Origin: Ilyonectria destructans | Lineage: Eukaryota > Ascomycota > Sordariomycetes > Hypocreales > Nectriaceae | Assembly (NCBI GenBank): GCA_020740775.1 | Contig: JAHEWK010000047.1 | Span: forward strand, 62,001-126,000 | Length of the DNA stretch: 64,000 nt | Direction of reading: 5' to 3' | Shown: positions 3,562-52,653 of the stretch, piece after piece | Layout: the number at the start of each line of letters is the position of its first letter | How positions within the stretch are numbered: the first letter of the stretch is position 1 | The notes under the pieces: generated by a model | Told to the model about the DNA's origin: nothing | The model's input: the letters and a program-made list of their open reading frames with translations, nothing else | Databases searched by the model: none | Position numbers and translations under genes: made by a program

Positions 3562-4813
3562 GATGAAAGCATCTTCGGGAAAAAGTGATTGAGCCGCAGC
3601 GATGAGACCTCCCATGCGGGCTTGGACTGGGAACGATAACTCCCGCCGACACTGCGTTTACTGGGATCCAATCTTGTACATTTTATCCCCATCTTGCAGG
3701 CTCAATTACCACATTCTGAATGCGTGGGTCTTGGTAAGCTGACGTCGGTCGCATAAACCATCCGGAAAATGGTCGTCTATGGAGCCAAGTATAGATCGCC
3801 CGATCTAGTGTCACAAATAAAAACACCGGTACGGGCTCGAACTTGAAAGGTTATCTAGTAAGCGGGCAGCCAAGAAGTTCAACTGTGCCTTCGCGGGCGG
3901 TCCGTAACGTGCCACGGAAAAAGGGGTTTTATTATTACGTTTGTGTGGCTCTGAAAGGATATGTGGCGGAGTAAATCCTTATCACCAGACCATCCAGATG
4001 GTCGACTTCGACCTTCATCTTGGCGACCATTCTGGCTCTTTTCACAAAGTAGCACAGGCACGACGATAACGCCGAATGGCTGGCCAGCCTCTGTAACATT
4101 GAAAATGTATGTGAAGCATGTGAAGCATGTGAATGCATGTGAATGCATGTAATAGGTACGTCATAGCTCCTTTGGTCCAAAAGGTAAGTTAGCCGCTTTT
4201 CCGAGTTTGTCAGATCAGCGGTGGATGGCGTGATTCGTGAATCATGTCTTTTTTATTGCTAGCTCTGAAGTTTCTTCCATCATGATACAATGTAAGATGA
4301 GTGTTGACTGTACAACGTTACCCTATTCTAGCACCTGATTCCTTCCTGGGGTTGGGAATCACCGTTTCCCAAAGCCCGTGTGAGCAGCTATCCAGTTATT
4401 TAGGAGAAGCTAAGTTTCTATGCAGGGTGGAAAGCCGAGGAGATAAAGGTGCCGGGCACCTACCCATGGAGGAGAGAGTGAGGAGACGAACGCTTTCTTC
4501 TTTGACTGTTCGAGTCAGGGACAAGTCGAGAACGGGTTGTGCTTAACGCACAACACTACGAAGTTATCACGAAAGGGTGAGTAATTTATTGCTGCCGGGA
4601 CGACGTAGGGATCGAGAGATCCTTGCACATTTTCACGAGTGAAGCACGATCGAGAGGGAGTGAAGTATATCTAGTTACAAGCAACGGGGATCGCTTGCGA
4701 GATTGATACTGATGGAATCAGCAGTGTATACGATATCCAGAGGGTATTCAAGTTGGGAGCGAAAAGCGATCTGGTCATAAGTTAAGAGACGAACTGTGAT
4801 TAAAAAAGGAGAG
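3562..4813. other. Intergenic; short tandem repeat at 4111-4150
   Basis: No conserved coding sequence is visible. A short imperfect tandem array (GTGAAGCAT twice, then GTGAATGCAT twice) lies at 4111-4150. The rest is unique-looking sequence. Confidence 0.4.
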
Positions 4814-6758: not shown

Positions 6759-9003
6759 ATGACTCTTTCCGCAGAGAGCGAATATGAACCCCCTGATGAG
6801 GCTTTCGGTCTTCTTCGCTCCGCAAGATTGAGCTCTCGTCTGAACCAGATAGAGCAGATCAGAGCAAATGGAGTTGGAGAATTGATCTCTTTGCCTCAAC
6901 TGGTGGTTTGCGGGGACCAATCAGCAGGGAAAAGCTCAGTCTTGGAGGGGATTACGGGAATCCCTTTTCCCAGACAAGATGGTTTATGCACTAGATTTCC
7001 TACGGAGATTGTACTGAGGCACTGCAACGCGGCACAGACCATCGTCGCTAGCATTCGGCCTCACAGCTCTCGTCCTCAACAAGTTCAACAAAGTCTGAGG
7101 GCATACCACAAGGATGTCAAGGATCTCTCGGAACTGCCATCCATCATCAATGATGTATCGAAGCTCATGGGACTTCGGGGGTTCACCGACAGCGACGATG
7201 ACAACGCCTTTGCATCGGATGCTCTCCGTATTGAGATCAGTGGACCCATCGGCCTGCATCTCAGTGTGGTAGATCTCCCTGGTCTGATTTCAGTGTCGAA
7301 CGAGGAGCAATCGGACGACGATGTCGACGCAGTCCGCGATATGGTTGCATCGTACCTACAGAATTCCAGAACGATTGTTCTATCCGTTCTTCAGGCCAGC
7401 AACGATATTGCCAACCAGGGCATCATCAAACTGGCTCGTTAGTTTGATCCAGATGGTGGGAGAACAGTTGGGATCATCACGAAACCTGACTTGATCAATG
7501 AAGGAACCGAGAGCAAAATCGCCCGCGTGGCTAAAAACTTGGATAACATCAAACTCAAGTTAGGCTTCTTTTTGTTGAAGAATCCGAGTCCTTCGGAGCT
7601 TGAACAAGGTCTGGATATGGATACGCGATCTCGCCGCGAGCTTCAGTTTTTCTCCTCGCCTCCCTGGGTGTCGCAAGGGCTCGATACTGAACGGATTGGG
7701 GCGGAGAAGCTCAGGGTTTTCCTGCAGGATCTCCTGGATACCCATATCGAAAGAGAACTCCCGAAGGTGAAAGAAGATATTAGGAAGAGCCTAGAGGCCT
7801 CAGAGAGGGAATTGCAAGTATTGGGGGAGCCACGCCCAACCGTTGGGCACATTCGCGCCTTTATGATCAGGCTCAGCATGCGATTCACAGAAATAGCACA
7901 GGCAGCACTTGACGGAAACTATCATGGAAACGACCAGGAATTCTTCGCTAACTCCGAGGATTCAAGGTTGCGTGCTCGAGTTCAACAACTCAACACTACC
8001 TTTGCCACCCAAGTGCGGGTGAACGGTGAGAAGAGACGAGTCAAAGCGACGCCTCAATCTCCAGAATCAGATAACGAATCAACTAATGATGCAGACGGCC
8101 AAATGATTGTGACCAAAGCAGAGATGATGCACTGGGTCAAGCAGGTAAGCGAATTGCCTACGTCGAGAAAAGTATTAAGGCTTACTCATTGATAAAGGCC
8201 TATACACGTACAAAAGGGAAAGAGCTCCCAGGAAACTATAATTCTGCTCTACTTGGAGAACTGTTCCTCGAACAGTCTCAGCCATGGTTACCAATCGCCG
8301 AAAACCATGTCGACAATGTCTTCAGCGCTGTGTCGAAATGGGTTGGCAAGGCGGCAGATAGGCTGTTACACGAGGAAAAGATCCGCCGAGAAATTAGCGA
8401 ATTACTGCAAGACTGGATGCAGAGAGCGAGAGAGCAAGCGTCAGATGAGCTTAGCAAGCTTATCCAAGACGAGAAACGAAGCCCGCTGACCTACAATCAC
8501 TACTACACCGACAATGTGCAGAAGGCGAGGCTGAATTTCCAGAGAATGGTAATAAAAGACGTTGTGGCTGAGGTTACAGAAGAAGAATGGCACGGGAAGT
8601 TGCACATCTCCAATCGGCCCGTCGAGATCGAGAATTTTGTTTCCGCACTGCAATCGAGGATCACTGTCAACATGGATGAGCAAGCGTGCAATGAAGCTCT
8701 CACGGAGCTGCATGCCTATTACAAGGTGAGTATGATCTCTTTTTGCTCAACAGCTCTTTCTCGTTTGCTTATTGTTACAAGGTTGCCATGAAAACATTCG
8801 TCGACAACGTGGCCCGACAAGTCATTGAACGGCATATTATATCAAGTTTACCAGCCGCATTTTGCCCCAACAATGTATCTCAAATGCCTGACGAAGCTCT
8901 CTTGAACATCGGCTCGGAGCCCGAAAAGCAAATTCTGCAAAGACAAAAACTTGCCGAAATAACTCAAGGGCTGAGACAAAGCCTTGCTGCCCTACAGAAA
9001 TAG
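6759..9003 (+). pseudogene. Dynamin-like (Mx-type) GTPase with one internal TAG
   Basis: Dynamin-superfamily large GTPase, expected to bind and remodel membranes by GTP-driven self-assembly. Three exons are inferred: 6759-8144, 8198-8725 and 8782-9003. The introns are 53 and 56 nt, both GT..AG and phase 0, giving 711 codons, normal for fungal Mx-like proteins. The G1 loop is GDQSAGKSS (residues 52-60), the switch-I Thr is in GLCTRFPTE, G3 is DLPG (172-175) and G4 is TKPD (241-244). The middle/stalk region and a C-terminal effector-like helix (about 640-711) follow. The only defect is TAG at 7440-7442 between LAR and FDPDG, inside the G domain. Everything after it stays open and spliceable. 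It may be a young pseudogene (CAG to TAG), a locus repaired by mRNA editing, or a sequencing error. It has no evident operon-like partners. Confidence 0.8.
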
Positions 9004-9428
9004 AACCCGTGAAACAGCAAGCTATTCTGTACGTGGATGCGCTTCGCACTACCCCATCATTTTTGCCCTGGTTGCGGTCATTTGGCCGACCGCCTCATTA
9101 GTTGACTCGTTATCTGATTCTGGAGATTGGGACGTAACTTTGGTTTTTGTCGGATTTCCTGGTAAGATTTTGCTTCATGGGCTTCAGGCAACCTTTTGGT
9201 AGATGAGTCCCTCGACATTGGTTTTCCCACAGGGTTTTCCCAATGCTGTTACGCAAATGCGGAGGGAAGATGTTCGTGTATGTAATGTGGAATATAAAGA
9301 TTTCTACTTCATGGTTTATATATCCGTTCTCGATATGCTCGACGGGATCGAGGTTTTAGGTACTAAAGTCTAATTCGCAGCCGAGTATATCTACTCATTG
9401 CCTTCAGCTTCCGTCATCATTTTCACTT
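9004..9428. other. Intergenic between convergent genes
   Basis: This is the shared 3' flank of the plus-strand GTPase gene and the minus-strand ORF ending at 9429. No repeats or coding motifs are recognised. Confidence 0.4.
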
Positions 9429-14560: not shown

Positions 14561-14686
14561 TTCAGCCTGAGACTGCTGACTGTGCTGCTAGGTGTTTGAC
14601 CATGCAATCTTTCAAGTAGAGCAGATAATGATGAATCTATTATAAGATAGGGTATGTATGAATATTCTTAGGGTGTATATTTATAT

Positions 14687-15593
14687 GGGAATTGATATAC
14701 AGGCATGACATTTTTGATACACGGGCATGACTCTTACACGGGCATGACTTTTATGACATCTGATTCGCTACATTTCCGTCGACCCATAGATACATCCTCG
14801 CAAAGGCGGTAATACTAGCTCTCTTAACAAGCTCTTATTTCTAGCACCTAACTAACCAGATCAATCCAGCTCTCTAGAATAGGTCTGTGCAGGACGTCAA
14901 AACAAGATCTAGTTTTGAATATAGCATAAGATCAGTTCCATTGCGCCTTAGAGGGCAGCTATCTATACGTCTATTCTCTAACTACTATAGAAGGAAGAAT
15001 CTCTTCGTCGCTGTCGCGGGTGTATCTCGTGATCGAAACGGAGCTCCTATGGTGGCTCATGGAGCCCCTGCGATCCATGAGGCCGTAGAAAGCTTGTAAA
15101 CGTCTGTGGATAAGATGCGAAGAGATTTTCGAGCACATGTTCGTCGTCGATACCGTAATACTCGCCGATACTCGCGGTGCTGCGAGCTGACTGTGGTCTA
15201 TCCGTACGTAGCGGTGGGCTGAACCCGGCTTGTTGGCACTGTCGCTGTCGTTTTCGAGGACGTGCTTGATCGCTCGGGCTAGACCTCCGGGTCTGGCGTC
15301 TTGAATTGCTCTCTGAGCTAGGAGGAGACTCGGATTGGGACATAATGAGGGTCTTTGTCGTCAAGGGTTTGGAGACTGGCAATGGATTGCTATCTGATGG
15401 AGAGCTGGATGGCGTCGCGTCAGTCACTAAGGGATGATTATGGACAGCTAAACTCTGGGTACAAATTAGAGCTGTCGGCAGAACCGGATGTACTAACAAA
15501 AGAGGGTCCTATCCAATCAGATGTCATAAAAGTCATGCCCGTGTAAGAGTCATGCCCGTGTATCAAAAATGTCATGCCCGTATATCAATTCCC
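14687..15593. mobile_element. 907-bp inverted-repeat element with 8-bp TSD
   Basis: The termini GGGAATTGATATAC and its inverse GTATATCAATTCCC delimit the element. Each terminus continues for about 75-80 bp of near-identical inverted repeat with three spaced copies of the motif GGGCATGACT/GGCATGACAT (for example ACACGGGCATGACT). Both sides are flanked by ATTTATAT (14679-14686 and 15594-15601), an exact 8-bp target duplication. The TSD length suggests hAT or another 8-bp-TSD superfamily, but the GGG termini are unusual for hAT. Its interior holds only a possible 98-codon minus-strand ORF, so it appears non-autonomous. Confidence 0.75.
15047..15343 (-). CDS. Possible 98-aa ORF inside the 907-bp element
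   Basis: From the Met at 15343 the frame begins with a Ser/Arg-rich stretch (MSQSESPPSSESNSRRQTRR, then RPRKRQRQ) resembling a nuclear localisation signal. It continues with SIGEYYGIDDEHVLENLFASY. I recognise no domain. It might be a transposase N-terminal remnant or chance. The same frame is open further upstream to 15499. Confidence 0.3.
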   Translation of the reverse strand: MSQSESPPSSESNSRRQTRRSSPSDQARPRKRQRQCQQAGFSPPLRTDRPQSARSTASIGEYYGIDDEHVLENLFASYPQTFTSFLRPHGSQGLHEPP

Positions 15594-15826
15594 ATTTATA
15601 TATATTAAGCCAAATAGTATTATAAATATAAATGATAAAGGTTGATACTATTTATAATGCTCTCCCACACCAGCCGGTCCTACTCTGCTCTTGATCCGAT
15701 TCTATTCCGAAAGTTTCACCTGAAAGAGGACACTCAATATGGATGCCCTGACCTATTTTCATTACATTATAAGTTACCCTTGATACAGTAGGCTCGTCAT
15801 AGCCGTGTTCCTCCTTTCTCCTGAAA

Positions 15827-17310: not shown

Positions 17311-17440
17311 GGCGACCCATACCTGCACGGGTACCCGTGCAACTAAGGTCACATGACATTTACACGGGTAGCCGTGCAAGTAAGATTCCTTATGTAAGTA
17401 AGGGCATCCGTAGCTGCATTACGTGGCCTTATTTGCACAC

Positions 17441-17530
17441 CAATTCAACGGTCAACAGCTTCTATCACGTCAATTCAACGGTCAACAGCTTCTATCACGT
17501 CAATTCAACGGTCAACAGCTTCTGTTACAT
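17441..17530. repeat. 30-bp tandem repeat, three copies
   Basis: Three head-to-tail 30-bp units (CAATTCAACGGTCAACAGCT then TCTATCACGT) lie between the left TIR and the transposase ATG. The third has minor changes. The placement suggests a promoter or 5' UTR element, or a transposase-binding array. Confidence 0.8.
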
Positions 17531-17563
17531 CAATTCAACTTGCCACGCCTTTCTTCTGCTATT

Positions 17564-20059
17564 ATGGACCCAATTGGCGTCCCCCGAACTTTCCCTGACG
17601 ATGCCCTTCCTCCTGAAGGCGAATTCAACTCACGGGAGGAATTACGTACAGCAATCAATGCTTGGGCAGCGCCACGAGGTTATGCCTTTGTGGTCTTACG
17701 ATCTTCGATAAGTAAGAGTGGAAGAAATACCGTTACATTCAACTGTGACCGTGGAGCAGGGCGCAGGCCTCCTTCGGTCTCAGCCTCAAAGAAACAGACA
17801 GAGTCACGTCGTACAGGATGTCTCTTCTCTGTCATAGCAAAGGAAAGTCTATGTAAGACTAAATGGAGTCTGGGGCATCGTCCTGGGGTTGGCTTTGATC
17901 AACATAATCACGAACCAAGTGCCGGTCAACGGTCACATCCCGAGCTTCGTCGGCTATCACGCCCACAGCAAAAAACATTCCACCAACTCACTAATGCTGG
18001 TGCTGCGCCAAAGGCAATTATATCCTTTTTACGCCTGACGTCAGACACACTTGCTATCAATCAAGATGTCTACAACTGCATTGCACAGGGCAAACGGGAG
18101 CTTGCTCGGGGTCAAAGCAACATGCATGCCCTTGCTGACCAGCTTAAGAGTGAGGGCTTCTGGAGCCGAATTCGCCTTGATCAGAGCGAGAGAGTTGTGG
18201 CAGTGTTATTTGCACACCCGAAGTCACTGGGATACCTCCAGTCATATCCTGAAGTGCTTATATTGGACTGCACATATAAGACCAACAAGTACAAGATGCC
18301 GCTTCTCGATATAGTTGGTGTTGATGCTTGTCAACGATCCTTCTGTATTGCATTTGCATTCCTTAGTGGTGAGGAAGAGGAAGACTTTATCTGGGCTCTT
18401 GAAGAGTTGCGGTATATGTATGAGCTTCATGGAGCAGCCCTTCCATCTGTGATAATTACAGATCGCTGCCTTGCTTGTATGAATGCTGTTTCCTCTCCCT
18501 CTTGTTTCCCTGAGTCAATCTTGATGTTATGCTTATGGCATATCAACAAAGCAGTCCTAAGCTACTGTATGCCTGCATTTACTAAAGATAAAGACAATCC
18601 TCAAGGGTATGAAGAGTGGAAGGCATTCTATGGATATTGGCATGAGATTGTAGCCTCACCGACTGAGGATATCTACAATGAGAGACTTGAGAAGTTCAGG
18701 AAGCATTATATCCCTGACTATATCAACGAAGTGGGCTACATCATGGAGACCTGGCTAGATCTCCACAAGCAGAAATTCGTGAAGGTATGGGTCGGCCAAT
18801 ACCTTCACTTTGAGCAATATGTCACATCAAGGTGTGAGGGCATTCACCAGCTTATTAAGAGTCACTTGAAAACCTCACAAGTTGACCTCTTTGAAGCATG
18901 GCGGGTCATCAAGCTTGTTGTACGGAATCAGCTTATTGAACTTGAGGCAAATCAGGCCAGGCAGCATATCGCTATACCTCTTCGGCTCTCCGGGGTATTG
19001 TACAGTAATATGCATGGTTGGATCTCACATGAAGCCCTACGGAAGGTCGAGACTCAACGGGAACGACTACTGAAGGAACATCCTGCATGTACAGGGGCCT
19101 TTACTAAGACTCTTGGTCTGCCTTGTGCTCATGCCCTTCAGCCTTTGATAGGGCAAAATCAGCCCCTTCAACTGCATCATTTCCATTCACATTGGCATCT
19201 TCAACGCTCAGGAATTCCCCGGCTTATTATTGAGCCTCACAAGCAGTTTGATCGTCTAGCAGCTCGTTCAACATTGCCACCAACAAGCACACAGCGGGAG
19301 CCCTGTACATTTGAACAGGTTGAGAAGGCAGTACAACCAAAGGCTCTGCCAACGTGTTCGAGATGTCATGAGAAAGGCCACACAATGAGGTCTAAAGCAT
19401 GCCCTTTACGCTACGAACATCTATTGCCAGCTCCCGCCCAAACCACTACAATAACGCATACAACAACACACACATCATCTCGCTCTGTAACCCGCTCACT
19501 ATCCCCATTATCCCAAGCAGGATCCTCTACAGTATCTGAGACTGTAGCCTACACAACGACACACACAACAACACATACAACTCAGGTAGTATCTCCTTTA
19601 GCAGCCGGACTTATAACTGTCACAGTGGCACAGGCAGCAACAGTGTCTGAACTACGAGTTGATGACCCCCGTGCTATCTTCCAACGATACAAAGAAGCAC
19701 GAGAGGCCTGGTTCAATACGTTGCCTCGGGGAGCCTACAAGACCAATCAGCAATACCGCAAGGCTATCGGACTGCCTCTACGCTACAGCAAAGCAGAATA
19801 TGACTGGTGCCTTGACTATAAGCAAATGGGGAGCCGTTGCAGGGCGGGAAATGGCATCAGAGACTGGACTAAGGAGGAAATGATGAGTTATCTTGATTGG
19901 GATAAAGCTGAGAATGAGCGAGTTGAACAGAATGTAGGGATTGAGATGGCAGAGCAGCCTTTCTCAGGGCGGCGAGGCATGCAAGATATTTGGGATGCGG
20001 CTGAGAGAGATCTTCAATTACAGGAGAGATTGTACGGCGATGAGAACCCCCCCTGCTGA
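17564..20059 (+). CDS. MULE transposase (DDE, FAR1/WRKY-GCM1 type)
   Basis: An intact 831-codon transposase that would excise and reinsert the element through its TIRs. The start is placed at the Met in the context TATTATGGACCC (17564). The frame stays open 47 codons upstream, but only through the tandem repeats. In order: an N-terminal C2H2-type WRKY-GCM1/FAR1-like zinc finger (Cys in TFNCDRG, Cys in RTGCLF, and HNH in DQHNHEP); a helical region; the MULE catalytic core with the first Asp in LILDCTYKTNKYKM (about residue 235) and the second in VIITDRCLACM (about 300); CLWHINKAV after it; and a zinc knuckle, CSRCHEKGHTMRSKACPLR. A Thr-rich linker (ITHTTTHTSS) and a C-terminal extension with DWCLDYK follow. 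The length matches fungal Hop-like MULE transposases. It converges with a second ORF in the same element. Confidence 0.85.
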   Translation: MDPIGVPRTFPDDALPPEGEFNSREELRTAINAWAAPRGYAFVVLRSSISKSGRNTVTFNCDRGAGRRPPSVSASKKQTESRRTGCLFSVIAKESLCKTKWSLGHRPGVGFDQHNHEPSAGQRSHPELRRLSRPQQKTFHQLTNAGAAPKAIISFLRLTSDTLAINQDVYNCIAQGKRELARGQSNMHALADQLKSEGFWSRIRLDQSERVVAVLFAHPKSLGYLQSYPEVLILDCTYKTNKYKMPLLDIVGVDACQRSFCIAFAFLSGEEEEDFIWALEELRYMYELHGAALPSVIITDRCLACMNAVSSPSCFPESILMLCLWHINKAVLSYCMPAFTKDKDNPQGYEEWKAFYGYWHEIVASPTEDIYNERLEKFRKHYIPDYINEVGYIMETWLDLHKQKFVKVWVGQYLHFEQYVTSRCEGIHQLIKSHLKTSQVDLFEAWRVIKLVVRNQLIELEANQARQHIAIPLRLSGVLYSNMHGWISHEALRKVETQRERLLKEHPACTGAFTKTLGLPCAHALQPLIGQNQPLQLHHFHSHWHLQRSGIPRLIIEPHKQFDRLAARSTLPPTSTQREPCTFEQVEKAVQPKALPTCSRCHEKGHTMRSKACPLRYEHLLPAPAQTTTITHTTTHTSSRSVTRSLSPLSQAGSSTVSETVAYTTTHTTTHTTQVVSPLAAGLITVTVAQAATVSELRVDDPRAIFQRYKEAREAWFNTLPRGAYKTNQQYRKAIGLPLRYSKAEYDWCLDYKQMGSRCRAGNGIRDWTKEEMMSYLDWDKAENERVEQNVGIEMAEQPFSGRRGMQDIWDAAERDLQLQERLYGDENPPC

Positions 20060-20294
20060 TACTTGGAAGAGTAATAGGGGATGCAATCAGAATATATCAT
20101 TAGAAAGAGAAAGAAAAGGAGAATCTCCGAGTATAGTTATAGTGACCCAATGGCTTAGTTTGATCGAGTTGTGGCCGAGTTCCTATGTAGAGTTAAGTAG
20201 GCTTAGTGGTTGCCCATAAGATAACCAGAGATACTGCAAAAATAACACAATAGTGTATTTATTGAACTCTTCTATAGTATTACTGCGTTCCCTG

Positions 20295-20909
20295 CTACAT
20301 CCACATAACATACCCATTCTGATCGACATTCCAAATATGCATCCCTGACCTCTCTGCTGCCCGGAGTGCTGGTAGGTTAGTAGTCATCCCTACAGCAGCT
20401 GTTGGCCAGTTTGTGCCTGGGACCGTGATGTTCATATTACGATATTCATTATCGATATTTCGAAGCTGATTGTAATTCCACATAGGAGTTACATCCGGAT
20501 AAGGGCGCTGTTGCCCTTGGTAAAGAACATTATTAAGAAACCCAATATGCCACTCTCCAGTAAGCTGATATCCAAATGGCATCACCTCTGTAGTAACAGA
20601 GCGCCCTTGAGGAGGATATTGAGTAGCTTGAGCTCTTATGAGTGCTTGGGGGTCTGCATAGAGCGTGGTGGGAGACATTGGATCCGTTGGCAGGGTCGTA
20701 GTAGCCCTCCAATACTCAACTGGGAATGGTACCGTTGTTGGATGAACAAGGCGGGCTGGGGGCTGCGTTTGTTGGTTATTGGCAATAGGCTGTAGGATAA
20801 ATTGGTTATTGGTGTTGACTGGTAAAGCCCCAGCTGGTGTTGCTGAATGATCTACGAAGATAGGGATATCCCGGGGGTTCTGACGCTGACTTTGATTGCG
20901 GTTGTACAT
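20295..20909 (-). CDS. Accessory ORF of the MULE, unknown function
   Basis: A 204-residue protein encoded opposite to the transposase and wholly inside the TIRs. Its ATG is about 300 bp from the right TIR, and its stop lies 236 bp from the transposase stop, so the two genes converge. The N-terminal half is rich in Asn, Gln and Pro (MYNRNQSQRQNPRDIPIFVD, then NTNNQFILQPIANNQQTQPP). The C-terminal half is aromatic and looks folded (PFGYQLTGEWHIGFLNNVLY, MWNYNQLRNIDNEYRN, MHIWNVDQNGYVMWM). There is no signal peptide, TM helix or recognised domain. The layout recalls maize MuDR, whose second gene mudrB converges on the transposase gene mudrA, but I see no sequence similarity to claim. A 33-bp tandem repeat sits between the ORF and the TIR. 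The function is unknown. Confidence 0.65.
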   Translation of the reverse strand: MYNRNQSQRQNPRDIPIFVDHSATPAGALPVNTNNQFILQPIANNQQTQPPARLVHPTTVPFPVEYWRATTTLPTDPMSPTTLYADPQALIRAQATQYPPQGRSVTTEVMPFGYQLTGEWHIGFLNNVLYQGQQRPYPDVTPMWNYNQLRNIDNEYRNMNITVPGTNWPTAAVGMTTNLPALRAAERSGMHIWNVDQNGYVMWM

Positions 20910-20972
20910 CTTGATAGTGTTGCTTAATATAGAAAGAGGGCTTCTTCCAAGAGGAAGAATTCTGCTTTATAT

Positions 20973-21043
20973 ACTGCAGGCGTTGAAGTCATTCACTTAC
21001 ACATGACTGCAGGCGTTGAAGTCATTCACTTACATATGACTGC
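20973..21043. repeat. 33-bp tandem repeat upstream of the MULE accessory ORF
   Basis: Two full 33-bp units and the start of a third (ACTGCAGGCGTTGAAGTCAT then TCACTTACACATG). They lie between the right TIR and the start of the minus-strand ORF, mirroring the 30-bp array at the other end of the element. Confidence 0.75.
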
Positions 21044-21321
21044 TGTGGTGTTATGACCAAGTATCGTGTGTTATTCACGGCCTTGCGCAGACTGGTACGT
21101 TGCCAACGGATCAAACGTAATACATTGAATAGCTGTATGTACACCAAATCATCGTCTTCCTTCAATCACATGTAAATACGGCTTCTGCAGATAGAAAAGA
21201 GATATCTCTCTCACGCAGCTACGGATGCCCTTACTTACATAAGGAATCTTACTTGCACGGCTACCCGTGTAAATGTCATGTGACCTTAGTTGCACGGGTA
21301 CCCGTGCAGGTATGGGTCGCC

Positions 21322-21679: not shown

Positions 21680-22275
21680 ATGGACATGAAAGAAATCGGC
21701 ATCTTCCCGGCCTCGGGCGGCCTGGGCGGCAGCGCCTACCGGCATCTGCTCAAGCTGGTGCCCAACGACCACGTCACGCTCATCAGCCGGCACCCGGAGA
21801 AGGTGGAGGCCGAGTACCGCGACGCGGGCGTGAGGGCGCTCAGGGCATCGTACGAGTCGTCGCCGCAGGAGCTGGAGACGGCCTTCAGGGGGCTGGACGT
21901 GCTGTTCCCCGTCTCTTATCCCAGCTAGGTGCACGAGTATCGGGTGAAGGTGAGTTGTTACCAGACCGACCATGCAGAAGATGTGATTGGGGAACGTGAA
22001 TGCATGCATGCATGTGAGGAGGAGGAAGGGGGGGGGGGGAGAGGGGAGAAAGAACATAACATGGCTAACTTGAGGCACCACTCTCCGTCAACAGGTGCAA
22101 CTCCCAGCAATAGAGGCGGCCAAGCGCGCGGGGGTGAAGCATATCTTCTACAGCAGCTTGGGCTTCGCCAGCGACGCCGCCGCAAAGTCCCTCAAGTCGG
22201 ACTCCAAGGCGGCGGTGATGCTGGCGCACCTCGACAGCGAGGCGCACCTGGACTCTGTCAATATCAAGTCGCTCG
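21680..22275 (+). pseudogene. NmrA-like NAD(P)-binding protein, stop-containing and truncated
   Basis: Exon 1 (21680-21949) encodes a Rossmann start with IGIFPASGGLGGSAYRHLL (GxxGxxG) and VTLISRHPEKVEAEYRDAGV, then LDVLFPVSYPS. A TAG at 21926-21928 interrupts the frame, which otherwise reads on through VHEYRVK to a donor (AAG/GTGAGT). Intron 21950-22094 (145 nt) ends CAACAG. Exon 2 continues VQLPAIEAAKRAGVKHIFYS and SLGFASDAA. Order and spacing fit NmrA-like/quinone-oxidoreductase-type NAD(P)-sensing proteins. Similarity is lost after HLDSEAHLDS, where about half of a normal ~300-residue protein is missing. The break coincides with the start of a Copia-like element. The stop is compatible with a CAG to TAG change. 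Confidence 0.65.
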
Positions 22276-33609: not shown

Positions 33610-34030
33610 TAGGGATGCGTTTTTGACGTCATAAACCCCAAGTTACCAATTGACGTCATAAACCCCAACTGACGGGTAATTTACCGTCATAAACCTCCTT
33701 CCTAACTGGGTTTAGTGAGTATCCCAAAAGGGGTTGGAGCGGGGGAAGACCATGAGTTGTTGCGACCCCTGAGGAGGCTTCATCACCCCCCGATGCTTTG
33801 CTGTTGAGATTTCTTCACCGACAACAACTATTTATGGTCATTACTGAGTCAATATGACCAATCAGGGAGGCCGTCCTAAACTTCATGGCATTGACGAATA
33901 TTTCCGTAGTCACCAAATAGTGCTTGGAAGCACGTGATAAATGACGGTCATAAACCTCGGGTTTATGACAGTCATTTACCTAGGGGTTTTGGTAATTTAC
34001 CTCCTGGTAATTTACCTCGATGCATCCCTA
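33610..34030. mobile_element. 421-bp MITE, deletion derivative of the 37.7-kb hAT
   Basis: The termini are TAGGGATGCG at 33610 and, reversed, TAGGGATGCA at 34030. The left 297 bp match the start of the hAT at 37722, including GACGTCATAAACC repeats, the ATG and the first codons. The right 124 bp match its end. The internal junction is at TTTCCG (33901-33906), a 6-bp microhomology present at both breakpoints in the full element (38013-38018 and 40108-40113). The flanking octamers CTCTCAAT and GCAGGAAT do not form a clean TSD. A hAT remnant lies to the left and a cut Helitron to the right. Confidence 0.85.
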
Positions 34031-36958
34031 GCAGGAATGTCATCTCTATGCTTAGGGGATCTACGCTCAGCGGATTACCCTCACCCTGAGGCATAGTCCT
34101 ACTCGGCTCGGGGTTAATGGCAGTGACGTGGAATCCCCACGTGCGTGCAAAAACATCACGAGCGGCTTCGTCCTCCATGTCGGCTCCGGGGCAATTTTCC
34201 ATCCAGTACAGGCCGTGGTTGTGTGGACTCCCACGCCCTTGCCATTCATAACGATCCCAGTAATCCGTGATGCTGAACTTCTTGCTTAGCACGATATCCC
34301 GAAAGAGGCAGTATCGGTGGTAGAAGTGGAAAGCAGCAATGTGAGGGTTCTGCCGCAATAAACGGCGCGATAGAGCCATCCTCTCCGGCTCGGTGGCGGC
34401 TAGCCAGTCGTCATACTGGGACATATGCTGGTAGAGACTCCGCCAGTGTAAATCTGCCGGGCTAAACGTGATGAATGCACCAGGACAACCAAGGTTATAG
34501 GCATAGGCCTCGAGGTCCTGCCTCTTTTTGTTCCAGAATGGACGCGTACCGCGAATAGAAACCGCATGCCTTGTGATCGAGTTGATCAGCGCCTGCGCCT
34601 CGGGGTCCTCGCTGTGTTCGAGCGCCTGAATAAGTTGCTCTCGCGTGAGCGGCTGATGCCTTCCATCATGTTGCTTCACGAAGAATCTGGACCTTGAACG
34701 TGCCTGTGACCGCATTAGTGTGTTGAAGGCGACGAAGCGGAAGGTCGGGTGGCGTGCAAAACGCCCGTCGTGCCAGCGCATCGCGTGCTCGACGTAATCC
34801 TTGTAATCAATGGAGCGTAATCGAGGTTCAACAAAGTCGGCTCTACCGTCAGGAAAGAGGCAGGGAAACGCCAAGGAGAGTAGGGCATGAGAGCGATTGA
34901 ACTCATTAATGGGTGTGTGTCGTATATTCGGGAGCCGCAGCTCGTGTTGCGCCTGCACCTGGAAGCTTGTGGAAAGCCCTGAATCAACTTCTGATTCTCC
35001 GGCGAGAATAGACCGCAGAGCATCGAGCTCCGTGTCCTTGGCCAGCAGGTCTGGCACTGCAGCCTCGTCCTCCAGGTCAGGCTCTGCCTCCTGATCTTCC
35101 TCGGGTCCAATATCCGCAGCCTCCACCTGACTTTGGGGAATAGCATCCAGGACATTGCCATCTTGGGGCAATTGATTCAGCCTCTCTTCGTCGATGACGA
35201 TGCATCGATAACCAGGATGATGGCGGCGGAGGTAGTCTAGCCATATGACAACCGGCTGGCGGCGGACACGGAACTGGCGGGTGAATTGCCGGCTAAGAAT
35301 TGCGTGGGACGACGTATTGGCAGGACGTAGTAATACAATGTTCAACTCCTGCGGCAGAAGCGGGAGCTGATTGTACACTAAGCCAACCTCACGGAGAAAG
35401 TGAACTACGTGCCCCCGATACTTGTACTGCTGCCCTCGCACAAGCATAATGTTCACGTGGACGTGAACACGAGCAATCAAAGACTCTTCGGTAGGCGTAA
35501 GCTGGGGCAACCGGGCCGGTACAGGGCCAAAGTCGAGCTGATTATCCGCAGAGAAGAAATACGGCTCGTCGGGGCGGCGTTTCTCATCTTTTCGATAACA
35601 ACGCGCACAAATGCCATCGCAATCGATCTTCATCTGGAACCAACTCTCTTGGCATCGACCGCAAAACTGCATTTGGTCATTGTCCAGCTTTGTCCAGAAC
35701 TCGCGGAGGATTGCCTTGTCGCGACTAGTCAAGGCGCAAGCCTCGAGGTCTCCATTCCACACCGGGTCTTGTGCGTGAAATACCGCCGAGTCTTCCGGTG
35801 GAATCATCACTGGGCTCCGATACCGTCGTGGCGGCCTCGACGATCGAGTTTGCCTTCGAGATTGTCTCGGCCGCCCCCCTGTACCAGGGGCAGGACCACG
35901 GCGACCACGCCTTGGCTGTGTGGAAGGCTGCGGCAAGCGATGGCGAAGAGGGCTTCCATCCACGGAGTTATTATCGTCGTTCTCGTCTTCGTCCCCTGGA
36001 TCGGAATCACACTCCACCCCTAATTGTTTGAGGTACCTCCGTGGTCGAGCAGGCGAAAGAAGTAAGTTGAAATAGTCCTCGGCGTCAATATCAGATTCCG
36101 AGAACTGTCCCCTGTCATTTCCATCCTTGGTTACCCCATCCCCGTCTTGAAACCAACTCGGTTGTAGTCGATCTCGACTCCCATCTACGCTCCGTGGTTA
36201 GCCTGAACAACTTACCAGGACCACAGCACAAGGATACCTTCTCCAGGACCCTCAGACCCACCAAAGACGCCGAGTTGAGATATTGCAGGAGTCAGTGACA
36301 CAGTCTCCCCTGCACGGCGTCGTGAACGATGGTCGCGCTGGACAGCGGCCAGCTTGGCCCTCGCCCCGGCCTTGGAAGGATCATCTTGCGAGTCCTTCCC
36401 AGGCCTGTGGAACCTAGCAGCCAAGTAAGAGTAATCCAAACCAGTTGCGCTGCTTCGGACAGTAGATGGATCGGAATGTGAGGCGATTGGATGGGCCGTT
36501 GGCTGCACGGGAGGTGAGGGAGCTAGAGCACGGAAACGCCGCGTGCTTTGTTGGGTTGGTGGAATTGGCGTCCCCAGCACAACGTGCGGCTGGCTAAGTG
36601 ACTCTCGGAATAGCCTCCTAGCTGCATGAAGTTGCCGTAGTTTCTCTGGCGACGTAGGCTGGGTTCCGGATCTCTCGTTAGGAGGCGATAAGCCAGCATC
36701 TCCGTCGGTTCTCTTCGGGGCACGTCTCTCAGCTGAGGCTAGGTTCCTCAGCGTCAAGGTCGCGTCTCTGGATCTGGAATACTTCATTTAGTTAGTATTG
36801 ATCTTACAGAGTGAGGAGACAGAGCTGACATGAGAATCGTTCTTATTACGACAATCAAGGCAGTTCTTCGTGTTCCCAGCAGATTTCCTTTTGCTGACGA
36901 AGTCGCCCGCCGGTCTCTCCTCGCCACAGCGGGCACAGACAATGGAAATTATGTCCAT
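34031..36958 (-). pseudogene. Helitron transposase, Rep part only, cut by the MITE
   Basis: The inferred start is the Met at 36958. A first exon encodes a C-x2-C..C-x2-C module (IVCARCGEERPAGDF...NCLDCRNKND). A likely 48-nt intron with a TACTAAC branch site (36786-36833) leads into a Pro/Arg-rich segment (36785-36212). A donor GTAAGT near 36211 leads to a long frame open to 34031 (EDYFNLLLSPARPRRYLKQL, DNQMQFCGRCQESWFQMKID, then TPTEESLIARVHVHVNIML). The Helitron_like_N rolling-circle nuclease shows FVKQHDGRHQPLTREQL, LGCPGAFITFSPADLHWRSL and the HUH-type motif GRGSPHNHGLYWMENCPG. The PIF1-type helicase half is missing: the frame runs into the MITE at 34030. It is therefore a non-autonomous or dead 5' piece. 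Confidence 0.75.
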
Positions 36959-44400: not shown

Positions 44401-47155
44401 CCTTGCGGCACAACCACGACATTCGACTCCTCGTCACGGTCATCCCAACCACTACTCCAGCGTGGAGAGATGGCAGAGCATTCACCTCAATACGCTGTAC
44501 TGGGCGGTCTTCAGGAGGTGGCGGGGTCTACAAGACGCAGCCGGACCGGAGGCTCGTCTGCGAGCGGCCCCGGAGACGATCAACATAGCGCAGTCTGGTG
44601 TGCATCTTCCACTGCTGGAGGCATACGCCGGGCGTGGGGCTCTATTGGAGGACCTCTGCTTCTACGACTATGCTAGCGTGATTCAAGTGCGTCGGGTTGG
44701 GAAGCGGACGAACGTAGACAAGCCGCAGTATTTCCCCTTCGACCAAGACCTTGTCAATGGAGAGAGATGGATCCAAGAGCTCCTGAAGGCAGGGGCGCAG
44801 TACGTCCCGGTGCTCACCGGCCCCCTCAACCACGACCTGGATAAGCTAGACCCAGGATATTACCAACGGTAGGAGAGGTGAAGAGAGAGAGAAGGCTCGT
44901 CGAAGAACTAACGGCATACAGAACCGCGGTGGTCCTCCTAGCACTCTTTGTACCTTGGCAACGCTTCACGCGCCTGGACGAGCTCTACGGCTACCGCTAT
45001 GCATCTGGTGAGTACCCCTCAGTCAAAGACGTGTGGCAAAAGCTGTCGGAAGCCATACCGGACCGGGTGAAGGGGGTGGTTAGCAACATTAAACTTCTGC
45101 ACAAGAGCGCCGAAGATGCTAAGAAAGACGCGGCGTTGTGGGCTAGCCGCAGCGAAGGTGACGAGGAGAAAGAGCACGAGCCGGCGGAGGAAGGAATAGC
45201 CCCTGGCACCCCGTGGCGACCGCAGAACACGGACTTGAGGTACACATTCCATGACGCGGTGTATAACCTGCACGGCGATCAAGGCATTGCCAAAGACTTC
45301 CCCACACTGGCAAGGCTGCTACAGGCGCTCGAGAGAGCCAGCTTCTCCGACCCCGAACCGGACCCGTGGGGCGCGGACACGCAGTCCGAACATCAAGCGA
45401 CAGTAAAAACGATGACGAAGCCCGAGATTGGCATGGTACGGGCGGCCCAGCTGCGGCTCCACAGAGCCAGAGTGCTAGCCATCGAAGGGGATGATGAAGT
45501 CGGCGAAGACAAGAACGGCGACGAGGCTGGTTTCGGTCCCGGCGATGATCAGTATTTGTTCCCACCTATCCCGGCGCCCAACCTACCCCCCGCTCCAGCT
45601 CATACTTGGGTAGATATAGCACCTGGCAGCAGCTTCCTCCTGGTCGGGAACATGATAGGCAAGCAGCGAACGCTAAACCGCATGCAGAAGATCGCCCTCG
45701 GCCTCATCTGTGAGGCGATGGACAGAGCGGAGGAAGTGTCAGATATAGCCGCTGACGGCAACGTAGGACACACGGTGTGGGAGCAGCCACCTCAACATCT
45801 CCAATACATAGGCGGAAGCGGCGGCACCGGGAAGTCTTGGCTCATCGAGACGCTGAAAGAGGTATTCGCGGCGAAAGGGTCGTCGAAACGTATTGTCATA
45901 ACAGCTACGTCCGGGACGGCGGCGGCAGGGATCGGCGGTAACACCATCCACTCCGCGCTGGGGCTAGCCTTCAAGGATCAAGACGGAGCCGCGATGGAAA
46001 GCCTACCATCCGCGAACCTGGAGAGGAGCCGGCAGCGTTGGAGAAGGCGTGACGTGCTTGTGGTCGACGAGGTAAGCATGTTGGGACTTAAGACGCTCTA
46101 CGAAGTAGACCACAAGCTGCGGGCGCTCCGCGGCTTCCCAGACAGGCCGTTCGGCGGGATACCGGTGGTGGTCTTCACGGGCGACTTCCTCCAGTTCGGA
46201 CCAGTACTGCAGAAGGGTCTGCTGAGCCGGGTCGACCCCAGCGACAGCGGCAAGGGGCTACGGAACCTCTCGGATCGTGCGACGCAATATCGATGGCAGC
46301 AGATCCAGGCCAAGACGACATGGGAGCTGTTTACCATCGTGGTGATCCTAGAGGAGCAGAAGAGGGCCGAGGGCGACGAGGAACTGATAGGGCTCTTAGA
46401 ACGCATCCGGACAGGCCGACAGACAGCGGCCGACCTGGACAAGCTCAACTCGCGATACATCCCAGACGAGAAGCTCGACTTCACGGGAGGCCGGCGCGCC
46501 ATTCTCCCGCTCAACCGACACAGGTGGGACCTCACGCTCTGTGCCGCCCTGGCCTTCGGCGAGGAGCACGGCAGGAAGGTGTCCCTGTTCATGTCCGATC
46601 ACCAGTGGAAAACCCGCGTGCCCAGCGAGGAAGAGATGGAGGCCGTAGTGCTGCTCGGAGATGACGCGCAGCTCCCCATCCCAGGCATCTTTCCGTACGT
46701 CGAGGGCATGCCCGTCATCGTCAACCAGAACAAGTACCTAGGGCTGAAAGTAGTCAATGGAGCAGAGTTCACGGCCGCTGGCGTCGTCGCAGACGGAGAG
46801 GTAGAAGAACGGGTGATCCACGACCGGCTGTCTGTCTTCCTCGGGCCGCCAAGCGGCATTCTTCTCCAATCGCAGGACACGGAGGGGCTCGCGTTCCCGC
46901 ACATACCTCCGGGTACCCTCATGCTAGGGACAGAGACTGTGCAGCTTGACAAAGAAAAGCACGGCAAATACGTCTGTCCGCGACTTGCAGCCAAGCGGGA
47001 GTTTAAGATGGGGCTGACGCGTACGGGGCTGCCATGCACGCCGGGCTTTGCGCTCACTGACTATAAGGCGCAGAGCAAGACCCTAGAGAAGGTCCTGCTC
47101 GGGCTCTATGGGAGAAAAGGGACGAAGGGATACCCGAGCATGGAGAAGTGCGACG
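41473..47155 (+). pseudogene. Helitron Rep/helicase transposase, decayed, 3' end cut by Copia
   Basis: Rolling-circle transposase in pieces. Part 1 (41473-43269) has the cysteine-rich N-terminal domain (THCVVCYEQKASVDVSDW, HFACRQCFP, VCQDCSHAL) and LTPMEERLIGLYIPCGWITK. A TGA at 43267-43269 is followed in the same frame by VVGGLFATHPAFPFLIYNM. The Rep nuclease (43327-44031) has the HUH motif ERGAEHLHGFLWLD. A short intron-like gap (about 44013-44070) and HRCQMHSCGATCVKYSFKEK follow. A frameshift near 44470 and a break at 44870 precede the PIF1-type helicase (44878-47155). There the Walker A is GGSGGTGKSWLIE, the Walker B VLVVDEVSML, and later motifs are VVFTGDFLQFGPV and FALTDYKAQSKTL. It ends at the Copia LTR before the final helicase motif and the Helitron 3' hairpin. 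At least three lesions, so inactive. Confidence 0.8.
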
Positions 47156-47284
47156 TGTTGAAATGAGCATATTGTGTTGATTGAAGAAGAAGAAAACTAG
47201 CGCTAACCAGCGGAAGCTATTATAGGAAGACATCCACCAATGGATCGGAATAGCCATTGATCCGTTAAAACACGGATCTCAACA
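47156..47284 (-). repeat. Copia 3' LTR
   Basis: 129 bp, TG..CA ends, identical by eye to 53458-53586. The polypurine tract GAGTGGGAG (minus strand) lies immediately inside at 47285-47293. Confidence 0.9.
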
Positions 47285-48447: not shown

Positions 48448-51400
48448 TCATGGGTTGGAGAGGCCCAGCGCGTTGCGAAACACGATAAAACGGTCTTTTG
48501 GAAGGGCTTTCGTAAGTCCATCAGCAATTTGTTGCTCGGTTGGGACATATTGAAGCTCAACGTCTCCATCCGAGACCCGCTCTCGAACGTAATGCCATTG
48601 AATGTCAATGTGCTTAGTCCTGGCATGGAACTGTGGATTTTTGGCCATTGCAATTGCCCCTTGATTGTCCCCGTAGAGGATAGTTGTTTGAAGGTCTCCA
48701 TGTTTGTATTGGGCCAGAAGTTCGCGCAGCAACCCTCGTAGCCAGATCGCTTCTTTGGTGCATTGTGTTTGTCCCATGTACTCCGCTTCGCAGGATGATA
48801 GTGCGACCGTTGGTTGTCGTTTGGAGCTCCAACTGATGGCGCCTGTGCCGACGTTGAAGACATAACCAGCCGTTGATCGTCTGGTGTCGTGGTCGCCAGC
48901 CCAGTCTGAGTCGGTGTACCCAACTAACGGTCTGAGTGGTCCGCTGAAAACGAGTTCCAAGTCGATCGTTCCTCGCAAGTACCTCATGATGCGCTTGACG
49001 GCTTGGGCGTGTTCGTTGGTTGGGTTTCCCAGATATCGGCTGCAGAGAGAGACGGCAAATGCGATGTCTGGGCGAGTGCCAAGCATGGCGTACATAAGTG
49101 AGCCAATTGCCTTTGCGTACCATAGTTTCGTCGTTTCAGACGCTTTGTATTCGTCTGGGACAGGTTGGAATTTTGACGTGCTCAGGGGAGTTGTGACTGG
49201 CTTGCTCTCCCACATGTCAAATTCCCGTAGGACCTTCTCGACATATGCTCGTTGGGAGAGGAAGATGGCCTTGTTGCGTCTGTCTCTCCGGACGGACATT
49301 CCCAGATAGTACTGACACGGACCAAGGTCAGTCATTTCGAATTTCTTGCTCAAGGCGGCTTTGATTTGGCCGATTTCTTCCTTATCGGGACCAGCGATTA
49401 GGAGATCATCCACGTAGACGGCGACGTAGGTTGTGCCGCGGATGAAGACGCCAACATCGGCGTTGAGTGGTTTGAAGCCGAGGGTTTCCAGAAAATCAGA
49501 TAATGTCTGGTACCAGATTCGGGGAGATTGTTTAAGGCCGTAGAGAGCTTTCCGCAGTCGGAAGACTCTGCCTGACTTGTCGTCGAAACCCTGTGGCTGA
49601 GTGACGTAGATTTCTTCTTTGACACCACCGTAAAGGAAGGCAGTTTTGACATCCATTTGTTCCAGTTCAAGGTCCAGGGCCGCAGCGATAGCGAAGATCA
49701 TTTTATAGCTCATCGGCTTGACCACGGAGGCAAACGTCTCGTGGTAGTCGATTCCCTCTCTTTGTTCGAAGCCCCTGACGACGAAGCGAGCTTTGAATCT
49801 GGTAATCTCGCCATCTTTTCCTCGCTTGAGCTTATACACCCATTTGCCTTGGAGAGTATGTTTTCCTGGAGGTAGGTTGACTGGTATGAAGGTGCCATTT
49901 CTCATTAAGGAGTCGATTTCGTCAATCATGGCTTGCATCCATTGTTCGCTATGAGGCGAGTTCATTGCTTCGGCAAAGGTTTTGGGTTCGGTCGGTTCAA
50001 GGTTGTTGGCGACCATGGCCAGATGAATGGCAATCATGGTGAAACGCCATTGGTTTTGTTGAGCTTCTGGGTCTTGTTGAGCTAGGACTGTGTATCTTGA
50101 TGGCATTTGTCCTCGGGTTTCCCGTACTGGAAAGCGTAGTTCGGGATGATGATCGGCTGCTTCCGTGGCGACTCGGTGTTCATCGACTGCACCGTCGGGG
50201 CTCTGTGTTCTTTCTGGAGTCCCCAATTCCACATGGATGCTCGGTTCATCTTGATTGGATGGATGGGATTGGTTGGGAGCTGTCTGTATCTCTTCGTCTA
50301 TTCTGGTGCTTTCGGTTATAGGTATAGTTGGAAGAGATGGTGTGAGATCCATCCGTTTTGCGTTGGGTTCATCAGTTGGTTGCTCCGATGCAATTCGTTT
50401 TCTCAGCAGGGATTTCTCATCGAACACAACGTTATTCGCAAAGAATATTCTTCCATCATCGTCGACTAAGGTGTAGTTTGTGCTCCCTTGATAGCCGAGG
50501 AGTCGGCAGGGGATTGTCTTGTCGTCCATCTTCTTCCGTTTGGCTGAAGGCATTTTTGCAAAGCCTCGGCTGCCGATAACTCGGAGATGGGAGAGATCCG
50601 GCACTTCCTTGTGCCATGCTTCATAAGGTGTGATTTGACAACCCGAGGCTGGTGAGAGGTTTCGTACATATGCCATGGCTTTGAGGACGTATGGCCAGAA
50701 TTTCTTTTCCAGTCCTGAATGAATGAGAGTTGTCGTGAGTTTCTCAAGTAAGATACGGTTTGCAACTTCGGCCACCCCGTTTTGTTCGTGCTGTTCGGTG
50801 GCAGAGAAGATCATCTCAATCATCTTGTTTTCGCAGTAGAGAGTGAGTGTATCAGCTTGGTTTTCTCCCGCCCGATCGAGGCGAAGGTAACGGCAGCGAC
50901 GGGTTGGCGTCTCAGCTTGTTCCAGAAGTTTTCGAAAGCAGTTGCCAAATTCGGACTTTTGCCTGATTGGGAAGACCCATGTCATCTTGGTGAAATCGTC
51001 TATGAAGCAGGCCCAGTATCTATGGCCGTCGATGCCTTCGTCTGGGAAGGGGCCAGCGATATCGCCATGAAGGCTCTCCACTGGTCTTGTTCCTTTTCGA
51101 ATGCATCCGCGGTGGGGCTTTTCCTTCATGCGTCCTTTTACGCACGCTTCACAGACGTTGGAGTCAGATAGAGGAGTGATGCCCGTGGACATCTTCATGA
51201 GTCAATGTAAGTTCTGTTCTCCCAAATGGCCGAGCCGGTCATGCCAGATCTGCAGTTTGGGGTCGCTGACGGAGTAGGCGGCCATAGCAGTGTGCAGTTG
51301 TTCGTCATCCTCGTCGATCACATATAGACCGAATTTCCTAGTGGCGCTGAGGATGACTTTACCGTGGTTTGTAATGACGGCTCGTCCTTTTCGAAATAGA

Positions 51401-52653
51401 ATAGTTGCTCCATCTTCCTCAAGGGCTGAGACTGAGATGAGGTTGCAGTGAGCGCCTGGCACGTAAAGTCCCTTATGAAAGGTTGTCGTTCCCTTGGCAT
51501 TGTTCCGTATGGTTTTGAGGGTGTATGTGCCTTGCCCCTCAGGCATAATGGCCGAGCCAGCTATGCCGTTGATGGCAGAGCCGGTGAATTTCTCGAGTGA
51601 CGTAAAGTTCTGTCGATGGCAGAACGTGTGGGAGGAGGCGCCACTGTCTAATACGTGAATTCGCTCGAGCAGTTTGGACGGTTCTGATGCGGCCAGGCCA
51701 AACTGGGGTTGAAAGGATAGAAAGGCCGTGTTTAAGAAGGCGATAGCGGCAGTGTGATCCTCGTCAGGTTGCAGTGACAAGGTGTTCTCCTTTCTCTTCT
51801 CAAGCTTGGTTTCTCGTCGTTCACTCCGAAGTGCTCGGTTTCTCCTGAACTCCTCAAGAAGGTCGGGATGTAAGCCAAAACATCCGGCCTTGGTGTGGCC
51901 TGGTTTCTTGCAGTGGTCGCATGTCTGCGTCACTCGGTCTTTGCCAGTACCACGCGTTCTAGCCAGCAGAGCTGTTTGTGTCTTGGCCTTTTCTCGTTGT
52001 TGAATGTTCATCTCCTCTTGCTCTGCGGCGGCAAGGGCGATTTCGAATGTGACGGCAGGTTTGATTACTTCTCCGTTGGAGCCTCGTTCGGGTAGCAAGT
52101 TGTGGTTTTGGTAGAAAGCAGTGAGGAACACTTCGTATTCGGGGCCAAGTCCGGTTAGGAACTTATTGATGAATTGAGGAGTGCCGATTTTGCATGTCTC
52201 GTCTAGTTGCAAGAGTTCAGATTGAGCTTCTCGCAGTCTTTCCGCAAAGTTCATGACTCCCGAGCATTGGTCTAAGGCCAGGTTGTTGTATCGTCGGTCG
52301 AGCTCTTGGAAAACCGCACTCCCCTTTGGTTTGAAGCGCTTTTCAAGCTCCCCGAACATCTCCGTGACGGTCTCCTTGCCCTTTACCTGCTCCCTGGCGT
52401 TGTATCCAAGTCGATTGAGGACTGCTCCGCACGCGCGTTCCTGCTTGGAGAGCCAGTTGTCGATCTTTTCAACGGTCGCGGCGCTGGTGCCGGTGGGTTT
52501 GTCCTTGTTTCGTTTGAACAAGTCTCCATATCCCGACATCGTGAGATGGTCCTTCATTTCTCGGCTCCAGTTGATCCATCCCGCTGTTGATTCTAGCTTC
52601 GGGATGTTGGCTAAGTTGCCAAGTGTTCCCGTCGATTCCTTCGAGGCCGACAT
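48448..52653 (-). pseudogene. Copia Gag-Pol polyprotein with one in-frame TGA
   Basis: Retrotransposon polyprotein for particle formation, reverse transcription and integration. It starts at ATG 52653 and runs about 1,400 codons to 48448. Gag (about 1-240) is followed by a zinc knuckle, CDHCKKPGHTKAGC. The aspartic protease site is VLDSGASSH (Asp336), and the GAG-pre-integrase block is WHDRLGHLGEQNL (about 470-482). The frame meets TGA at 51202-51204 and resumes in the same frame. Next come the integrase zinc finger and core (CEACVKGRMKEKPHR, HGDIAGPF, FIDDFTKMTWVF, EHEQNGVAEVANR). The Copia reverse transcriptase has MDVKTAFLYGGVKEEIYVTQ and the catalytic YVDDLLI. RNase H contains VGYTDSDWAGDHDTRRSTAG and ends near LTKALPKDRF. 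The order integrase before RT defines Copia. The TGA is compatible with a CGA change; readthrough at this Gag-Pol boundary is a weaker alternative. Confidence 0.85.

What the first reader, a model, noticed from the sequence alone, without database searches (positions are those of the whole stretch)
17311..21321. Fungal MULE with a convergent second gene, like maize MuDR in layout
Between identical 107-bp TIRs there are two open frames facing each other. One is the DDE transposase; the other is a 204-residue Asn/Gln/Pro-rich protein with an aromatic C-terminus that I do not recognise. Each gene starts near its own TIR behind a private short tandem array (30 bp x3 on the left, 33 bp x2 on the right). 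In maize MuDR, mudrA and mudrB have this convergent arrangement with TIR promoters. To my knowledge fungal Hop-type MULEs are described as one-gene elements, so the accessory protein could be a new transposition helper or a captured gene.
Basis: partly seen in the sequence, partly recalled or inferred. Interest (0 to 1): 0.75.

Follow-up and report, generated by a model that had tools for sequence, protein, structure and literature searches.

The report
Two-gene fungal Mutator-like jumping gene
A fungal jumping gene carries, facing its transposase gene, a second small gene that evolution keeps working and whose protein is almost free of the amino acid lysine, so it is probably a helper of the transposon whose exact job is still unknown.

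Summary
17311-21321 is a Mutator-like element with identical 107-bp inverted ends, an 831-aa transposase and a convergent small gene (ORF2), each behind its own tandem array. ORF2 is a real gene: 22 of the 27 close transposase loci found have it. Seven own-genome copies keep the full 209-aa frame; the window's copy stops five codons early. Diverged copies give dN/dS 0.33-0.52. Homologues occur in Ilyonectria, Cladobotryum and Fusarium. A TATA box lies 62-72 bp before its ATG in 20 of 21 copies, and the 33-bp repeat abuts it. One-gene relatives in the same genome lost ORF2 by at least two different deletions. New here: the protein is nearly lysine-free (3 lysines in 19 outside homologues), and the ORF2 half has been exchanged between subfamilies. 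Two-ORF Hop-type elements are already tabulated, uncharacterised, so this is a new variant of a known kind. Best reading: a trans-acting helper of transposition. Integration help (like MURB) and anti-silencing (like VANC) are not yet distinguished.

The parts
17311..21321 (.). whole element, 4011 bp
   Evidence: three further near-identical complete copies in the genome
17311..17417 (+). left TIR, 107 bp, with a perfect 18-bp palindrome at 17324-17341 and an imperfect 14-bp one at 17363-17376 (possible transposase sites, inferred)
21215..21321 (-). right TIR, identical to the left in inverse
17441..17539 (+). 30-bp tandem array before the transposase gene
   Evidence: unit present once or more in relatives
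17564..20059 (+). transposase gene, 831 aa; MULE domain at about 18254-18550; zinc knuckle at about 19355-19441 (bits 21.3, just under the Pfam cut-off of 22)
20280..20909 (-). ORF2 gene; the family's 209-aa extent. In this copy the frame closes at 20295-20297 (204 aa)
20962..20973 (-). TATA box TATATAAAGCAG of ORF2
   Evidence: TATA motif at -62 to -72 in 20 of 21 ORF2 copies
20973..21043 (-). 33-bp tandem array abutting the TATA box; each unit holds TTCAACG in ORF2 sense

Best explanation
A recently mobile two-gene MULE of the fungal Hop type. SHOWN: ORF2 is an old, transposon-borne, protein-coding gene under purifying selection, convergent with the transposase, with a conserved TATA box and a multiplied upstream unit; it can be lost by deletion, and its half recombines between subfamilies. 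Its product has a disordered N-terminus, a compact C-terminal domain of unknown fold and almost no lysine. INFERRED: the transposase acts on the palindrome-bearing TIRs; the ORF2 protein acts in trans as a helper of transposition, most likely at insertion as reported for maize MURB; members that lost ORF2 are served by others; lysine avoidance protects the helper from ubiquitylation and degradation.
For: Pairing with the transposase in 22 of 27 close loci. dN/dS 0.33-0.52 in 9 of 9 usable pairs, coding frame lowest of six frames in 9 of 9. Homologues in other genera down to 40% identity. Conserved promoter. Two ORF2 deletions with different breakpoints on both sides; one such element (L064) has 80-bp TIRs at 100%, a 9-bp duplication and an open 831-aa transposase. 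Lysine absence. MURB is reported as needed for insertion (passage).
Against: No functional, transcript or binding data. No sequence or fold link to MURB or any known protein. ORF2-less members with good ends, and more distant one-gene MULEs (L062), may mean ORF2 is simply not needed. L061 and L064 may stem from one insertion, and the ORF2 deletion in them may postdate it. The window's own copy lacks the conserved C-terminal residues and a target-site duplication.
Confidence: 0.5

Rival explanations
1. ORF2 is an anti-silencing factor that works like Arabidopsis VANC: it binds the tandem units at the element's promoters and keeps the family active against host silencing.
For: Both genes have variable-number arrays at their starts; [quoted passage not shown] Old copies bear dense TAA/TAG stops, so the host attacks repeats. 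A TTCAAC core occurs in both units, though a shared short word can be chance.
Against: No Pfam domain and no basic or zinc-binding DNA-binding signature; 0 Lys, 0 Cys, pI 6.9 in the C33 copy. The arrays also read simply as multiplied promoter units. No binding or methylation data.
Confidence: 0.22
2. ORF2 is a self-limiting regulator that damps transposition of its own family.
For: A separate TATA promoter would allow independent dosage. Only four complete elements carry the window's TIR.
Against: Elements that lost ORF2 should then have out-multiplied the others, but 22 of 27 close loci found still have it.
Confidence: 0.07
3. ORF2 is a host gene captured by the element, a passenger with no role in transposition.
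For: MULEs are known to pick up host genes (passage).
Against: No intact copy outside a transposase-bearing element was found in this genome; purifying selection across elements; promoter and position kept at about 48% protein identity.
Confidence: 0.07
4. ORF2 is a chance open frame.
For: None beyond its lack of a known domain.
Confidence: 0.01

Closest known systems
Hop of Fusarium oxysporum and the Ascomycota Hop sub-group of MULEs
   Same: Passages of PMC2725143 and PMC6446971: Hop is 3299 bp, TIRs 99 bp, 9-bp duplication, 836-aa transposase; the sub-group has TIRs of 85-99 bp, 1 or 2 ORFs, CCHC finger. Here TIRs 107 bp, 831-aa transposase, CCHC-like knuckle.
   Different: Hop is described with one gene. 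The table says nothing about what the second ORF of the sub-group is, so whether it is ORF2 is unknown. Hop's own sequence was not compared.
MuDR of maize
   Same: Two convergent genes, transposase plus a small protein of unclear action, long TIRs, 9-bp duplications (passages).
   Different: MuDR's genes are driven from promoters in the TIRs; here the ORF2 TATA box is inside.
Mutyl of Yarrowia lipolytica
   Same: Fungal MULE with two ORFs, grouped with Hop in the survey.
   Different: 7413 bp, 22-bp TIRs, second protein of 459 aa; the survey gives its orientation as 'same' in the text and 'antisens' in the table.
VANDAL21/Hiun of Arabidopsis
   Same: Accessory gene plus tandem repeats in non-coding parts (passages).
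   Different: No VANC sequence was compared; ORF2 matches no Pfam family.
Abermu MULEs of grasses
   Same: Second ORF in opposite orientation between the transposase gene and the 3' TIR, with one-gene members in the same family (passages).
   Different: Plant elements closer to MuDR; the second proteins are unrelated to MURB by that paper, and were not compared with ORF2.
Lysine-desert proteins of the ubiquitin-proteasome system
   Same: Conserved absence of lysine, with intrinsic disorder (abstract of PMC10169902).
   Different: Those are cellular proteins; a link of ORF2 to ubiquitin is inference only.

Membership tests
MULE (Mutator-like element) superfamily | MULE-type transposase domain | tested here: met
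   PF10551 E 9.6e-25
MULE (Mutator-like element) superfamily | long terminal inverted repeats | tested here: met
   107 bp, 100%
MULE (Mutator-like element) superfamily | 8-11 bp target-site duplication | tested here: inconclusive
   absent at the window's copy; present at 8 of the 21 elements (one read by eye) and at L061 and L064
Hop clade (group 35) | transposase groups with Hop | not tested
   Hop's sequence was not identified among the hits; transposases of Fusarium solani and F. oxysporum at 71-76% identity fall in the same 21-row clade, support 89/92
Hop clade (group 35) | CCHC-type knuckle in the transposase | tested here: inconclusive
   PF15288 E 0.00024, 21.3 bits against a cut-off of 22; above the cut-off in L064 and L062
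MuDR layout | two convergent genes | tested here: met
MuDR layout | promoters inside the TIRs | tested here: inconclusive
   TATA box of ORF2 lies inside the TIR in the sequence; transcript starts unknown
MURB family | sequence homology to MURB | not tested
   MURB sequence not at hand
MURB-like function | needed for insertion | not testable with these tools
   needs an assay
VANC-like function | binds tandem motifs of its own element and removes silencing | not testable with these tools
   needs an assay; arrays present
Pack-MULE | lacks its own transposase and carries host gene fragments | tested here: not met
   open 831-aa transposase
Lysine-desert protein | long, conserved lysine-free stretch | tested here: met
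   0 Lys in 8 of 10 own copies and 16 of 19 outside homologues, one each in the rest
Lysine-desert protein | absence of lysine protects from ubiquitylation | not testable with these tools
   needs an assay

The most novel reading that the evidence does not exclude
ORF2 founds a new class of transposon accessory protein: a lysine-free, trans-acting factor that works at or against the host ubiquitin system, itself staying undegraded, to license integration or to remove a host silencing factor; one-gene Hop-type elements, perhaps Hop itself, would be its deletion derivatives.
Probability: 0.14. Interest if true: 0.82.

Novelty: new variant of a known kind. Interest (0 to 1): 0.55.

Why it matters
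Why some MULEs need a second protein is still unclear (mudrB's product is called of undetermined function in the passages). Here one genome holds open two-gene elements beside natural one-gene deletion derivatives of the same clade, in a fungus, so the need for the second protein becomes directly testable. The near absence of lysine, if it means escape from ubiquitylation, would be a concrete and unusual clue to how such a protein can work.
Full report
WHAT IS THERE. The element 17311-21321 (4011 bp) has 107-bp TIRs that are 100% complementary; each holds a perfect 18-bp and an imperfect 14-bp palindrome. The transposase gene runs from an ATG at 17564 to 20059 (831 aa) and has the MULE domain. 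ORF2 runs the other way from 20909 and its frame closes at 20295. No duplication flanks this copy.

COPIES IN THE GENOME. The window lies in a 71.7-Mb assembly of 74 contigs. Four complete elements share its TIR: the window's (C42) and those on C13, C33 and C40. An alignment of the four shows 24 variable ungapped columns, and they sit at different sites, so the family moved recently. Of the four, only C33 has a 9-bp duplication (GGGTATGAT, seen by eye). The transposase search scored 54 of 245 candidates, so counts are lower bounds. Of the 27 loci in that list at 64% identity or more (two pieces on C32 counted as one), 22 have an ORF2 match beside them on the opposite strand and 5 do not. Of those 5, sequence was read for four (L059, L060, L061, L064) and an ORF2 profile found nothing; for the fifth (C26 near 319 kb) only the absence of a match is known. 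Ten ORF2 matches cover residues 1-204 without a stop, and all ten lie with a transposase facing them. Seven of the ten are open over the full 209 aa; three, the window's among them, stop four or five codons early. Both frames are open at six loci: C13 near 502 kb, C16 near 173 kb, C19 near 148 kb, C20, C25 and C38 (the C19 transposase match starts at residue 4). Other copies carry 153 TAA and 94 TAG against 4 TGA stops (from the rows), as repeat-induced point mutation would leave them; RIP was not tested beyond this.

ORF2 IS UNDER SELECTION. Among five ORF2 copies (10 pairs, one without synonymous change), dN/dS is 0.33-0.52 in the 9 usable pairs; bootstrap values of 1 or more occurred in 0 of 500 for eight of them and 1 of 500 for one. 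The coding frame gave the lowest ratio of six frames in 9 of 9; the next lowest (0.44-0.59) was always the same antisense frame, so part of the signal leaks there. The copies stand for four lineages, so the pairs are not independent. Two pairs with a heavily stop-ridden copy (L036) had intervals reaching 1. The transposase gives 0.29-0.38 in 10 pairs. The protein searches found 11 and then 23 relatives, the 23 including the 11. The named ones are from Ilyonectria, Cladobotryum and Fusarium; identity to the C33 copy is 40-85%, two rows (P0142, P0143) matching over 13% only.

ITS OWN PROMOTER. In the 21 loci where the ORF2 start was found, a TATA motif lies 62-72 bp before the ATG in 20. In the other (C13, L039) it is at -237 because of extra sequence between the two. 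TTCAACG or TTCAATG stands 14-16 bp before it in 19 of 21. This holds in L049 and L050, whose ORF2 is about 48% identical. Several of the 21 are near-copies. The 33-bp unit ends at the TATA box, so the array reads as a multiplied upstream promoter unit, present once to about five times. The transposase side has conserved units too but no clear TATA box by eye.

LOSS AND EXCHANGE. L064 (3304 bp, TIRs 80 bp at 100%, 9-bp duplication, open 831-aa transposase) lacks the stretch matching window 20191-21062; L060 lacks 20290-21182 and keeps the last codons of ORF2. Different breakpoints on both sides mean at least two deletions, so these forms derive from two-gene ones. L061 and L064 are 98% alike over 2992 bp and sit in the same target sequence in opposite orientation, so they may not be independent insertions; the deletion may also postdate insertion. 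A more distant MULE (L062, 3384 bp, TIRs 71 bp at 100%) shows one transposase and no ORF2. In a transposase tree of 40 rows, 10 of 11 ORF2-bearing rows form one supported clade (95/90); the wider clade that also holds the deleted forms and Fusarium proteins is weakly supported (89/92), and 24 of the 40 rows have no label because their DNA was not seen. ORF2 of the window type is close to the C19 type (dS 0.17) while their transposases are far apart (dS 0.54). Their DNA identity is 68-86% in 17561-19810, 92% in 19811-20060 and 95% in 20311-20560. I read this as exchange of the ORF2 half between subfamilies.

THE PROTEIN. The C33 copy is 30% Asn+Gln+Pro (41% in residues 1-61), with 12 Arg, no Lys and no Cys. 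Lysine is absent in 8 of 10 own copies, in 10 of 11 full-length and 6 of 8 partial outside homologues, with one lysine in each exception; 4 of the 23 outside rows (P0140 to P0143, short or fused) were left out. The 120 listed transposase homologues average 5.0% lysine (3.5-6.6%), and nine other long ORFs of the window have 2.2-6.1%. Shuffling the coding sequence gave a mean of 8.5 lysine codons and no lysine-free case in 2000. There was no proteome-wide control. The fold model has residues 1-61 below pLDDT 50 and a mixed helix-strand domain at middling confidence, with no credible match.

MECHANISM. Shown: a selected, separately promoted second gene of a mobile MULE, which can be lost. Inferred: it acts in trans, because ORF2-less members keep good ends and an open transposase beside many ORF2-bearing ones. 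MURB-type help at insertion is the leading guess; a VANC-type anti-silencing role is the main rival. The absence of lysine suggests avoidance of ubiquitylation; the abstract of PMC10169902 (all I saw of it) reports such deserts in ubiquitin-system proteins.

KNOWN WORK, all from passages. Hop: 3299 bp, 836-aa transposase, described with one gene. Mutyl: two ORFs. MuDR: two convergent genes driven from the TIRs, MURB needed for insertion. VANC binds motifs that form tandem repeats. Survey table: an Ascomycota Hop sub-group with 1 or 2 ORFs and nothing on the second. Verticillium MULEs: single transposase genes. Hence a new variant of a known kind, with an uncharacterised protein, not a new kind of element.

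Noticed in passing
L061 with L040; L064; L060 about 4350-4450: Two ORF2-less elements (L061, L064) share a 9-bp target sequence in opposite orientation, the C40 copy of the window's element sits directly against the duplication of L061, and the same flanking sequence appears beyond L060: several MULEs seem to have landed in one other repeat.
   Followed up: partly
L045 right flank and L046 flank: The 9-mer beside one end of L045 recurs beside the other-side end of L046 (element orientation), as if ectopic recombination or misassembly had exchanged flanks of near-identical copies; seen by eye.
   Followed up: no
L039, between TATA box and ORF2 start: About 170 bp of extra sequence lies in the ORF2 leader of the C13 copy, which also has a longer 33-bp array (4.2 units).
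   Followed up: no
window 33972-56802: A stretch rich in other mobile elements: Helitron-like (33972-35807, 45412-47166), Copia-like (48448-52653) and hAT (54178-56802) frames.
   Followed up: no
window 21680-21928: A frame with a weak NAD(P)H-binding match (PF13460, under its cut-off) begins about 360 bp beyond the right TIR, so the element may lie in that gene's upstream region.
   Followed up: no
window 14676-14770 / 15510-15604 and 8042-8129 / 9055-9142: Two further inverted-repeat pairs (95% and 82%) with 0.7-0.9 kb between, possibly small non-autonomous elements.
   Followed up: no
P0142, P0143: Fusarium vanettenii and one unnamed gene model carry only the first ORF2 residues within other sequence: a fused gene model or a fragment of ORF2 in another gene.
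   Followed up: no
P0020, P0044, P0073, P0091, P0092, P0126: Public records name these MULE transposases of Fusarium oxysporum 'PKS-NRPS hybrid synthetase', which looks like a propagated misannotation.
   Followed up: no
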